From the NCBI GenBank assembly GCA_024641475.1, contig JAHECZ010000004.1:36019-100018 (forward strand): a stretch of DNA of 64,000 nt, in the 5' to 3' direction. A program made the position numbers and the translations under genes. The notes beneath the pieces are model-generated. The model saw only the letters and a list, made by a program, of their open reading frames with translations, did no database searches and was not told the origin of the DNA. The DNA comes from Gammaproteobacteria bacterium. GTDB taxonomy: Bacteria; Pseudomonadota; Gammaproteobacteria; UBA6429; Thiohalophilaceae. Each line of letters starts with the position of its first letter. The stretch's first letter is position 1. Positions 44,503 through 64,000 of this stretch are shown here, piece by piece.

Positions 44503-45414
44503 ATGAATAATACGTCCGAATTTGCCCTGCCACCTGGTACCACCGTGGATGAGTACGTCCTTGAGCAAGTTCTCGGCGGGGGCGGCTTCAGCCTTGTGTA
44601 CCTTGCCAAATCCAATCGCACCAATCAATTGGTGGTAATAAAAGAATACATGCCCAGCAGCCTGGCCATGCGTGCCCCCAATATGGCGGTGGTGTGCCGT
44701 GAAGAGAAAAATAACGATCGTTTTACCCACGGCCGACGCCTGTTCTTTCAGGAAGCCAATACGCTCACCACGCTCAAACACCCGAATATTGTTAATGTGA
44801 TTAACTTCTTCCGCGCCAACGATACAGTCTACATCGTGATGGAGTACGAGGAAGGCGTTAATCTGCAGACGTATATAAAGAAGCATAAAGGCAATCTCAG
44901 CGAGCCCTTCATCAAGGCGGTGTTTCTGCCACTGCTGGAAGGTTTAAAAGTCATTCATAGTCAGGGGCTGTTACACCTGGACATCAAACCCGGCAACATC
45001 CATTTACGCTCCGGCGCCAATCCCTTGTTGCTGGATTTCGGTGCGGTGCATGAAATCATGCAAACCCGTCAGTTCCAGCCCAATCAGGTCGTGACGCCGG
45101 GCTTTTCACCGATTGAACAACTTGATCCCGGTGGTTATGTGGGTCCCTGGACCGATCTCTATGCAATGGGCGCGACCATGCGTGCTTCCATTGAAGGGAC
45201 AGCTCCGCCGCCTTCGCCCGAACGCCGTGAGAAAGACATGTTAAAACCGGCCGCCAGTGCCTTTAAAAAACGCTATTCATCCCACTTGCTGGAAGCCATC
45301 GATTGGGCAATGGAAGTTGATCCGTTATTACGCCCGCAAACTGTCGATGAGTTGATCAATGCCTTAAATGGCAAGTCGCCGCGACAAGACAAGAAACGTT
45401 TATTTAACTTTTAA
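44503..45414 (+). CDS. eukaryotic-like serine/threonine protein kinase
   Basis: 303 aa, soluble, kinase domain only. Seen: glycine loop GGGGFS (25-30), ATP lysine K47 in VVIKEYMP, catalytic HLDIKPGNI (D160), DFG at 178-180, and PGFSPIEQLD in the activation loop with GPWTDLYAMGATM after it. No sensor or membrane domain follows. Two nt separate it from a PP2C phosphatase, so the pair forms a reversible phosphorylation module. It resembles the kinase lobe of PpkA-type enzymes, but no type VI secretion gene is nearby. Confidence 0.93.
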   Translation: MNNTSEFALPPGTTVDEYVLEQVLGGGGFSLVYLAKSNRTNQLVVIKEYMPSSLAMRAPNMAVVCREEKNNDRFTHGRRLFFQEANTLTTLKHPNIVNVINFFRANDTVYIVMEYEEGVNLQTYIKKHKGNLSEPFIKAVFLPLLEGLKVIHSQGLLHLDIKPGNIHLRSGANPLLLDFGAVHEIMQTRQFQPNQVVTPGFSPIEQLDPGGYVGPWTDLYAMGATMRASIEGTAPPPSPERREKDMLKPAASAFKKRYSSHLLEAIDWAMEVDPLLRPQTVDELINALNGKSPRQDKKRLFNF

Positions 45415-45416
45415 CT

Positions 45417-46295
45417 ATGCAATACATTATTGGCCGCACATCACGTTTAGGTAACCGCACCATCAATCAGGATCGGGTGGCGGTGCTTGAGCGCGACAAT
45501 ACCGTGTTACTGGGCATCGGTGATGGCCTCGGTGGCAAAGTCGGCGGTGAAATTGCTGCGCAAACGCTGATTAATGTCCTCGCCAAGGAATTCAAGGATG
45601 TCCAACTGCCGATCGCCGATCCCAAGCAGTTTCTCACTCATGTTCTGCATAAAGCCCACTTTGCGGTGATCGATGCCGGACGTTTCCAGAATCCACCGAT
45701 CAATCCGGGCACAACCGCGGTAGTGTGTCTGATTCAGGAAGGTGTTGCCTGGTGGGCGCATGTCGGTGACAGCCGTCTGTATTTATTCCGCGGCGGCGTA
45801 CCGATTTATCGCACCCGCGATCATTCCGTGGTGGAAAGCCTGTACGAGAAAGGCCGCATCAGTATGCGCAAGCGCGATTCGCATCCGATGAAAAATTATA
45901 TGACGCGTTGCATCGGCCTCACCACCGAAGTACCCGAAGTCACCGTCAGCAATGAAGTACAATTACACGTCGGCGATATCCTGATGCTCTGCTCCGATGG
46001 CTTATGGGAACCGCTGGATGACATGTTGATGGGATCCATATTAATGGAAGGCAAATTCAGTGATGCGTTGAACAAAGCCGCCGAACGCGCCGAAGAAAAA
46101 AGTTATCCCAACTCTGACAACATCACCGCCGCCGCCATCCAGATACTATCGCTGCAATTGGTCGGCAAGGCGCTGAACGAATCGTACGATAAACAGGTGG
46201 TACGTGCCGACCCGGTGCAGACCGCAATCGACGTGATCGAGGAAACCTTCAAGATCTACGAAGATGAGATGGGCAAAAATATGCGCGGTAAATAA
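45417..46295 (+). CDS. PP2C family serine/threonine phosphatase
   Basis: 292 aa. Seen: metal and active-site motifs NQDR (17-20), IGDGLGGK (34-41), WAHVGDSRLYLFR, MLCSDGLWE and NSDNITAA, all in PP2C order. Expected to reverse the kinase encoded just upstream. The last 50 residues are a charged extension. Confidence 0.94.
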   Translation: MQYIIGRTSRLGNRTINQDRVAVLERDNTVLLGIGDGLGGKVGGEIAAQTLINVLAKEFKDVQLPIADPKQFLTHVLHKAHFAVIDAGRFQNPPINPGTTAVVCLIQEGVAWWAHVGDSRLYLFRGGVPIYRTRDHSVVESLYEKGRISMRKRDSHPMKNYMTRCIGLTTEVPEVTVSNEVQLHVGDILMLCSDGLWEPLDDMLMGSILMEGKFSDALNKAAERAEEKSYPNSDNITAAAIQILSLQLVGKALNESYDKQVVRADPVQTAIDVIEETFKIYEDEMGKNMRGK

Positions 46296-61416: not shown

Positions 61417-61445
61417 CAGTTCATCCCCACGCGTGTGGGGAACAC
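61417..61445 (-). repeat. solitary type I-E-like CRISPR repeat
   Basis: 29 nt. On the minus strand it reads GTGTTCCCCACACG then CGTGGGGATGAACTG, one base from the common I-E repeat ending in GAACCG. Neither side has another repeat at I-E spacing (61 nt). Its translation, VFPTRVGMN, is the well-known artefact of I-E repeats. Confidence 0.82.
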
Positions 61446-61742: not shown

Positions 61743-61780
61743 GTTTCAACGCCTCACCCGTTCAATTGAACGGGTGCAAC
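61743..61780 (-). repeat. degenerate leader-distal terminal repeat
   Basis: Its 5' part reads GTTTCAACGCCT instead of GTTTCAATCCT, one base longer with changes, while the palindrome and CAAC end are intact. Typical for the oldest end of an array. Confidence 0.9.
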
Positions 61781-61957
61781 CTTCCCTGCATTGTCTGGAT
61801 TACCACATTCATCACGTTTCAATCCTCACCCGTTCAATTGAACGGGTGCAACATTTAAAATTGGATGTTGCTGCATCCGTTACACTGTTTCAATCCTCAC
61901 CCGTTCAATTGAACGGGTGCAACTTACCGCCTCATCGTAGTTTGCTTTGTTTTGGAC

Positions 61958-61994
61958 GTTTCAATCCTCACACGTTCAATTGAACGGGTGCAAC
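61958..61994 (-). repeat. repeat 4 with a C-to-A change in the palindrome
   Basis: Reads CACACGTTCAA in the left arm instead of CACCCGTTCAA, breaking one base pair of the stem. It is the only internal repeat with a change that I found, and sits near the old end. Confidence 0.9.
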
Positions 61995-64000
61995 TTGAAT
62001 TGTCAGGTCAAGAGATGCTGATAACAAGTTTCAATCCTCACCCGTTCAATTGAACGGGTGCAACGATATGCGTACTGGCAAGATTCTTTCCTCCCGTATG
62101 TTTCAATCCTCACCCGTTCAATTGAACGGGTGCAACCTTAATCCCGGCGTTAAAGATTCGCTTTCGGCGGTGTTTCAATCCTCACCCGTTCAATTGAACG
62201 GGTGCAACAATCATCACCAGCGGCACGTCCGAATTATTTTTAGTTTCAATCCTCACCCGTTCAATTGAACGGGTGCAACTCCGGGCTAATATCGCCTCTA
62301 CGTCGGTATTATCTGTTTCAATCCTCACCCGTTCAATTGAACGGGTGCAACAATGTTGTTGATAACAGGGTAGCCGGATCGAGAGGTTTCAATCCTCACC
62401 CGTTCAATTGAACGGGTGCAACGATTTGCATTGGTAGCACACGCGCTACTAACGCCAGGTTTCAATCCTCACCCGTTCAATTGAACGGGTGCAACCCATG
62501 GCGCGGATACACTCTAGGTGGTGTGTTGTGTTTCAATCCTCACCCGTTCAATTGAACGGGTGCAACAATCTATTATCTTCTTCTACTACTGAGGAAACAA
62601 GGTTTCAATCCTCACCCGTTCAATTGAACGGGTGCAACTCACAGGGCTGTATTCAGGCCCACGCACTGGCCGGTTTCAATCCTCACCCGTTCAATTGAAC
62701 GGGTGCAACGAGCACGATCATCACGTTTGCAGGTTCAATTCAGGTTTCAATCCTCACCCGTTCAATTGAACGGGTGCAACCCGACAACTCATCATCGGTG
62801 ATCGTGCTACCAAAGTTTCAATCCTCACCCGTTCAATTGAACGGGTGCAACCCACTGTGGCTTGTTTTAGAGCTGGCTCATTGTATTGTTTCAATCCTCA
62901 CCCGTTCAATTGAACGGGTGCAACGTATCCTTGTATCCTTGTTTCCTTAGTAGTAGAAGTTTCAATCCTCACCCGTTCAATTGAACGGGTGCAACAGCTC
63001 ATGATTGCACCTCCTCGATCGAGTTATACGTTTCAATCCTCACCCGTTCAATTGAACGGGTGCAACTTTGGTGTGGATGTACTCAGTGCCATGGCGTTGG
63101 GGTTTCAATCCTCACCCGTTCAATTGAACGGGTGCAACCTGCGGCAACAGTTAAGTGATTGAAATGTAAAGAGTTTCAATCCTCACCCGTTCAATTGAAC
63201 GGGTGCAACACCGCACAGCGGGTTTGACCATTGCTACTGGTTCGTTTCAATCCTCACCCGTTCAATTGAACGGGTGCAACTTTGGCGCACAATCGGATAT
63301 TGAATACTTTGAGTCTGTTTCAATCCTCACCCGTTCAATTGAACGGGTGCAACGTCTACGGTTGAATTGGTAGCGTCAATCCAAAAAGTTTCAATCCTCA
63401 CCCGTTCAATTGAACGGGTGCAACTACAGGAAGGGGTAAACCGCAACAGTTTCAAGAAGTTTCAATCCTCACCCGTTCAATTGAACGGGTGCAACGGTGG
63501 CCATGTTGACTAAACCACGTCCCATACGGGTTTCAATCCTCACCCGTTCAATTGAACGGGTGCAACCACTCGACGGGTTGTATGACCCGTTAGGACATAT
63601 TGTTTCAATCCTCACCCGTTCAATTGAACGGGTGCAACTTTCCTGCAAGTCTTCCATGATCATAGCTTTGGTTGTTTCAATCCTCACCCGTTCAATTGAA
63701 CGGGTGCAACACGAATTTGGGACGAAATGGCGAGACTGATCGCGGTTTCAATCCTCACCCGTTCAATTGAACGGGTGCAACAGCCGGGGATCGGTGATGT
63801 TTTTCGTTTTTTATCAGTTTCAATCCTCACCCGTTCAATTGAACGGGTGCAACGGGGGTAGTTGTATGAACATCCAAGTTAAATCCAGTTTCAATCCTCA
63901 CCCGTTCAATTGAACGGGTGCAACTCAATACCAAAATGCAAAATAGTGATAAAATAGTGTTTCAATCCTCACCCGTTCAATTGAACGGGTGCAACCTGTT

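What the first reader, a model, noticed from the sequence alone, without database searches (positions are those of the whole stretch)
62567..62958. Two spacers overlap by 21 nt in opposite orientation with one mismatch
Bases 62581-62601 of the spacer after repeat 12 read TTCTACTACTGAGGAAACAA plus G. The reverse complement of 62938-62958, in the spacer after repeat 17, is the same except A for G at position 11: 20 of 21 match. A chance match this long is very unlikely. They appear to come from opposite strands of one locus, or of two related mobile elements, acquired at different times: the one nearer the leader (right) is younger. This fits repeated or primed uptake against a variable element.
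Basis: partly seen in the sequence, partly recalled or inferred. Interest (0 to 1): 0.72.

Follow-up and report, generated by a model that had tools for sequence, protein, structure and literature searches.

The report
CRISPR spacers sharing one target site
Two entries in a bacterial immune memory (a CRISPR array) look as if they were taken at different times from opposite strands of one site on an unidentified mobile element; this is a clear but ordinary sign of repeated encounters with a changing invader.

Summary
Spacer 12 (62567-62601) and the reverse complement of spacer 17 (62925-62958) share 20 of 21 bases. Chance expectation over all pairs of the 51 spacers is about 8e-6. The same repeat family in other genomes sits beside type I-C cas genes. 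Its PAM, measured here on Geobacillus phages, is 5'-TTC in 11 of 11 placements with at most 3 mismatches. The two spacers overlap at their PAM-proximal ends, so each shows the other's flank: TTC beside the younger spacer 17, ATC beside the older spacer 12. That supports one site sampled on both strands from two sequence variants, and permits the reading that the younger variant had lost spacer 12's TTC. No target of either spacer was found in phages, plasmids, viral contigs, genome contigs, the own genome or 369 genomes of its class, so priming is unproven. Overlapping I-C spacers of different age are published for Legionella (PMC5071653), so this is a new instance of a known kind. Cas1 was not found in the assembly, which ends inside the array.

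The parts
61743..64000 (-). CRISPR array, 37-nt repeats, inferred crRNA strand minus. It continues past the window to the end of its contig (C50:101427); 50 repeats with at most 2 mismatches, plus the degenerate first repeat and a cut last one, with 51 spacers.
61743..61780 (-). degenerate terminal repeat (trailer end)
   Evidence: read directly
62567..62601 (-). spacer 12, the older of the pair (further from the inferred leader)
62925..62958 (-). spacer 17, the younger of the pair
62581..62601 (+). shared 21 nt, G variant
62938..62958 (-). shared 21 nt, A variant, opposite orientation
62578..62580 (+). TTC inside spacer 12, the inferred 5' flank (PAM) of spacer 17's protospacer
   Evidence: PAM of the repeat family TTC
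62935..62937 (+). ATC inside spacer 17, the inferred 5' flank of spacer 12's protospacer in the younger variant
62925..62948 (+). three 8-nt units (GTATCCTT, GTATCCTT, GTTTCCTT) in spacer 17, a short tandem repeat in the target site
   Evidence: read directly

Best explanation
A type I-C array holds two guides from the two strands of one 48-bp site on an unidentified mobile element. Shown: the overlap, its orientation, the one-base difference, and TTC as PAM of this repeat family in Geobacillus. Inferred: type I-C, the crRNA strand and age order (from relatives); that the older guide (spacer 12) was taken when the site carried G at the middle position; and that a later variant with A there, and ATC instead of TTC beside the spacer 12 protospacer, yielded spacer 17 from the other strand. 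The likeliest way (about even odds against plain re-sampling) is primed uptake: the spacer 12 complex still bound the variant imperfectly, and Cas3 with the adaptation proteins supplied new fragments from nearby. The confidence given is for one site on two strands; the priming step alone stands at about 0.4.
For: Overlap far above chance. Repeat family beside I-C cas genes in 6 of the 7 stretches (of 33 found) whose proteins were scanned. TTC at 11 of 11 placements with at most 3 mismatches (10 distinct spacers) for Geobacillus arrays of the same repeat family. Both mutual flanks end in TC and one is exactly TTC; chance of this about 0.0017 if all bases are equally likely. Each match runs one base into the repeat, a C on the guide strand, as expected if the last repeat base comes from the PAM, which one survey suggests for I-C repeats with TTC PAMs (PMC8482600, passages read). 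Published parallel in another I-C array (PMC5071653, section 12 read). Unbiased sampling of a 40-kb element would give 0.015 such opposite-strand pairs for 10 spacers on it and 0.064 for 20.
Against: No protospacer was found, so target, flanks and variants are read only from the spacers themselves. The spacer 12 flank is ATC, not TTC. Only 1 pair among 51 spacers overlaps. The Legionella I-C study reports, for its limited laboratory set, no enrichment of new spacers near the priming site and a mild preference for the same strand (passage), which does not favour priming here. In another array of the repeat family (L024) the flanks readable from opposite-strand pairs were GCA and ACG, not TTC (2 of 10 pairs readable). 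No Cas1 match and no cas3_core match over the cut-off in the assembly.
Confidence: 0.82

Rival explanations
1. Plain re-sampling: the same element, met often or small in size, gave two spacers by unprimed uptake, and the overlap is a coincidence among many spacers from one element. It shares the one-site reading and differs only in the last step.
For: With 20 spacers on a 10-kb element 0.26 such pairs are expected, and 1.7 if all 51 came from one 10-kb element. One pair only, so no excess needs explaining.
Against: Needs a large share of the array to target one small element, for which there is no evidence. Spacer 46 reads as a DnaB-type helicase motif, which suggests a larger element for that spacer at least.
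Confidence: 0.4
2. The shared 21 nt is a repeated sequence present in inverted copies within one element (for instance around a plasmid partition or origin site with short iterated units), so the two spacers come from two places.
For: Spacer 17 holds 8-nt tandem units. Lactobacillus-type plasmids carry ATACAAGG iterons beside an AAA family ATPase gene, and match 22 of 23 bases there.
Against: E-value 0.8, a repetitive match in distant Gram-positive plasmids, and it covers only positions 26-48 of the 48-nt site. The mutual flanks agree with NTC at both ends, as one site would give.
Confidence: 0.12
3. Spacer 17 was copied from the host's own array (capture or recombination involving spacer 12).
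For: The 21 nt occur nowhere else in the assembly with up to 3 mismatches.
Against: Beyond the shared 21 nt plus one base each side, spacer 17 continues with sequence that is not the repeat, and it carries a mismatch.
Confidence: 0.01
4. Chance or low-complexity likeness of unrelated targets.
For: No target known. The stretch has a short TTC TTC TAC TAC run.
Against: Expected number 8.4e-6; best score in 300 simulated arrays 14 against 18 observed; flank agreement.
Confidence: 0.01

Closest known systems
Overlapping spacer pairs against LME-1 in the type I-C array of Legionella pneumophila Toronto-2005 (PMC5071653)
   Same: Type I-C. Two pairs of spacers of different age on overlapping target sites; the older one mismatches the later element at the PAM or seed; read there as possible escape followed by primed uptake (section 12).
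   Different: There the target element is known and the mismatches are read against it. Here the target is unknown, and the older spacer's flank is read only from the younger spacer. Whether the Legionella pairs lie on opposite strands is not stated in what I read.
Type I-C arrays with repeat GTTGCACCCG(N10)CGGGTGAGGATTGAAAC (Geobacillus, Moorella, Desulfofundulus, Chloroflexi and others)
   Same: Repeat stem, repeat length 37, similar spacer lengths.
   Different: The ten middle bases differ: 6-10 differences from the window repeat; the window repeat has a perfect 22-nt palindrome.
Overlapping de novo protospacers of Sulfolobus solfataricus on pMGB1 (PMC4390879, passages)
   Same: One region of an element sampled repeatedly.
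   Different: Archaeal system with a CCN PAM; new spacers from infected clones, not an array's history.

Membership tests
CRISPR-Cas type I-C array | repeat of a family associated with I-C cas genes | tested here: met
   33 stretches share the repeat frame. Proteins of 7 of the 33 were scanned: I-C proteins in 6 (L022, L023, L025, L034, L045, L048), none for the one protein taken from L021.
CRISPR-Cas type I-C array | own Cas8c, Cas7c, Cas5c, Cas3, Cas1c beside the array | tested here: inconclusive
   Contig ends inside the array. Cas1: 0 matches in the own genome. cas3_core: 4 matches, 0 over the cut-off. Cas8c, Cas7c and Cas5c were not searched in this genome.
CRISPR-Cas type I-C array | 5'-TTC PAM | tested here: inconclusive
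   TTC in 11 of 11 placements with at most 3 mismatches and 5 of 11 with 4-8 mismatches, all from Geobacillus spacers. In the window only the mutual flanks TTC and ATC and, for spacer 46, ATC in 5, GTC in 4 and GAG in 1 of 10 DnaB-like homologues, which are not its true target.
Primed adaptation | older spacer imperfectly matches the element that gave the younger one | tested here: inconclusive
   One mismatch at position 11 and an ATC flank, read from the spacers only.
Primed adaptation | uptake depends on the older spacer and on Cas3 | not testable with these tools
   Needs an experiment.
Primed adaptation | several new spacers cluster around the priming site | tested here: inconclusive
   Only this pair overlaps among 51 spacers. 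Clustering without overlap cannot be seen without the target.

The most novel reading that the evidence does not exclude
The array itself records an escape event: the older guide's TTC PAM had become ATC in the element variant that gave the younger guide from the opposite strand. Pairs that overlap head to head at their PAM ends could then be used to read PAMs and PAM escape directly from arrays whose targets are unknown. A side effect would be two guides whose first 21 bases pair with each other at 20 positions (-29.1 kcal/mol, the strongest of 1275 pairs), which might hinder each other.
Probability: 0.25. Interest if true: 0.38.

Novelty: new member of a known kind. Interest (0 to 1): 0.22.

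Why it matters
It is a clean fossil of repeated encounters between a bacterium and a changing mobile element. It shows that a head-to-head overlap between two spacers gives both PAM flanks without any target sequence. The biology itself, overlapping I-C spacers of different age, is already published (PMC5071653).

Tried and rejected
Target searches that gave nothing above chance for spacers 12 and 17: 21-mer with G or A in viral contigs and genome contigs, 0 stretches each; two 24-mers and a 22-mer in viral contigs, 0; codon-wobble patterns for the three open frames of the 48-nt site, 0; BLAST against phages of all 51 spacers, of each of the two, and of the 48-nt site, best E 0.2 for any spacer and 0.4 for these two; all 51 spacers against plasmids, none; the 48-nt site against plasmids, best listed E 0.8; 369 genomes drawn from the class, own included, no match for spacers 12 or 17 outside the array; 40 genomes of the family, own included, with 15 of the 51 spacers (12 to 26), one weak match outside the array, E 0.037, to spacer 19. 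For another spacer: a 26-mer of spacer 46 in viral contigs, 0. These pattern scans demand exact matches, so a target that differs by a few bases would be missed. Metagenome contigs was not searched (cap zero). All 8 viral and both genome-contig scans are used.

Rejected ideas: array self-capture (flanking bases) and chance or low complexity. Overlap as a common feature of these arrays: across 33 stretches and 548 spacers, opposite-strand overlaps with score 14 or more were seen only in L024 (9 pairs) and L039 (1 pair), two stretches of one contig; 0 pairs within the other 31 stretches, which hold 398 spacers.

Flaws of my own: spacer 1 carried two repeat bases, because I set the first repeat two bases short. 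One search missed the repeat with one mismatch, so it compared two spacers as one piece and left out the first and the last spacer. One search repeats the pair comparison with all 51 spacers corrected, and the result is the same.

Full report
The observation. The window ends inside a CRISPR array of 37-nt repeats that starts at 61743 with a degenerate copy and runs to the end of its contig. Spacer 12 (62567-62601) and the reverse complement of spacer 17 (62925-62958) share 21 nt with one difference, G or A at position 11. Over all 1275 pairs of the 51 spacers and both orientations 8.4e-6 such windows are expected. With +1 per match and -2 per mismatch the pair scores 18; the next best of 2550 comparisons scores 11, and 300 simulated arrays give best scores of 9-14. 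The exact-word measure alone does not show the excess: the longest exact shared word is 11 nt, because the mismatch sits in the middle, and simulated arrays gave 9-15.

Type and direction. The own assembly has no Cas1 match and no cas3_core match over the cut-off, and the contig ends in the array. The repeat itself, with up to 3 mismatches, is in 1 of 58 genomes searched, the own one. The looser repeat frame GTTGCACCCG(N10)CGGGTGAGGATTGAAAC was found in 33 stretches of genome contigs, with 6-10 differences from the window repeat, all in the ten middle bases. Neighbouring proteins in 6 of 7 scanned stretches match type I-C proteins; L048 alone shows Cas3, Cas5c, Cas8c, Cas7c, Cas4 and Cas1c in a row, with a repeat downstream of cas1 in the repeat's reading direction. 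Carried over, the crRNA strand of the window array is minus, the leader is on the right beyond the contig end, and spacer 17 is younger than spacer 12. This is inference from relatives and from the degenerate left repeat; no leader was seen.

PAM test. To learn the PAM of this repeat family I searched part of the Geobacillus spacers of L025 and L026 against phages, fetched the three phages D6E, phiOH2 and E2, and mapped 591 distinct spacers, the window's included, to them. Of 22 placements with at most 8 mismatches, the 11 with at most 3 mismatches (10 distinct spacers) all have TTC directly 5'; of the 11 with 4-8 mismatches 5 have TTC. All are Geobacillus spacers; none is from the window. The literature calls TTC the more canonical I-C PAM and lists Geobacillus for it, beside other I-C PAMs (PMC8482600, passages read).

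What the pair shows. The overlap lies at the 5' ends of both guides, so each spacer contains the base triplet that flanks the other's protospacer: TTC for spacer 17 and ATC for spacer 12. The match also runs one base into the repeat on each side, which is a C on the guide strand both times and fits a PAM-derived last repeat base. Both flanks NTC with at least one TTC has a chance of about 0.0017 for equal bases. This internal test favours a single site sampled on both strands. The ATC is either a tolerated variant or a change in the later variant of the element. A further spacer bears on this weakly: spacer 46 (64990-65023 in window numbering, beyond the window) reads as a DnaB motif (motif recalled; the homologues translate as SGAIEQDAD or SGSIEQDAD). 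In the 10 DnaB-like places found in genomes of the class the flank is ATC in 5, GTC in 4 and GAG in 1; the 2 other rows were not DnaB-like and came from other spacers. The true target's flank is unknown.

Target. Nothing above chance was found for either spacer. The mismatch is silent in one of the three open frames of the site; no frame could be chosen. Spacer 17 contains 8-nt tandem units. Similar ATACAAGG units lie beside an AAA family ATPase gene on a Lactiplantibacillus plasmid, a weak lead only, E 0.8.

Priming or re-sampling. Among random spacers on a 40-kb element an opposite-strand overlap of 21 nt or more is expected 0.015 times for 10 spacers and 0.064 for 20; for a 10-kb element with 20 spacers 0.26. 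So the pair is not extraordinary if much of the array targets one small element, and priming is an interpretation. In the Legionella I-C array two overlapping pairs, the older spacer mismatched at PAM or seed, were read as one possible sign of naturally primed uptake (PMC5071653: section 12 and passages read); the same paper found no enrichment near the priming site in its limited laboratory set. In the control arrays here, opposite-strand overlaps were confined to one contig, L024 and L039. Flanks could be read for 2 of those 10 pairs and were GCA and ACG, so the flank reading does not give TTC there; that genome may use another PAM, or the pairs may come from repeated sequence. I did not test which.

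Verdict. Observation confirmed, one-site reading well supported, variable element likely, primed uptake possible and unproven, target unknown. A new instance of a known pattern.

Noticed in passing
window 61419-61445 (minus): A lone type I-E-like repeat (GTGTTCCCCACACGCGTGGGGATGAAC; type recalled, not tested), about 300 nt left of the array; the only copy in the assembly with up to 3 mismatches.
   Followed up: partly
window array repeats, for example 62530-62566: The core of the repeat, CACCCGTTCAATTGAACGGGTG, is a perfect 22-nt palindrome; relatives keep the outer stem but vary the middle ten bases.
   Followed up: partly
L009, spacer 46 (64990-65023 in window numbering): This spacer reads as a conserved DnaB helicase motif (recalled) and matches dnaB-like places in 10 of 369 genomes of the class at 26-31 of its 34 nt; no such match in the own genome outside the array at E 0.01.
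   Followed up: partly
L024 and L039: One metagenome-assembled genome (LSA4.bin17) has 150 spacers in two stretches of one contig, with 10 opposite-strand and many same-strand overlapping or repeated spacers.
   Followed up: partly
spacers 12 and 17: The two guides would pair with each other over 20 of 21 bases, -29.1 kcal/mol, the lowest of 1275 pairs (mean -11.2).
   Followed up: no
L081 531-724: 8-bp iterons (ATACAAGG) beside an AAA family ATPase gene (a ParA-type partition gene is my guess) on Lactiplantibacillus plasmid pWCFS103, similar to the tandem units in spacer 17.
   Followed up: no
window 44503-46295: Two adjacent open frames on the + strand that look, from memory, like a Ser/Thr protein kinase and a PP2C-type phosphatase.
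   Followed up: no
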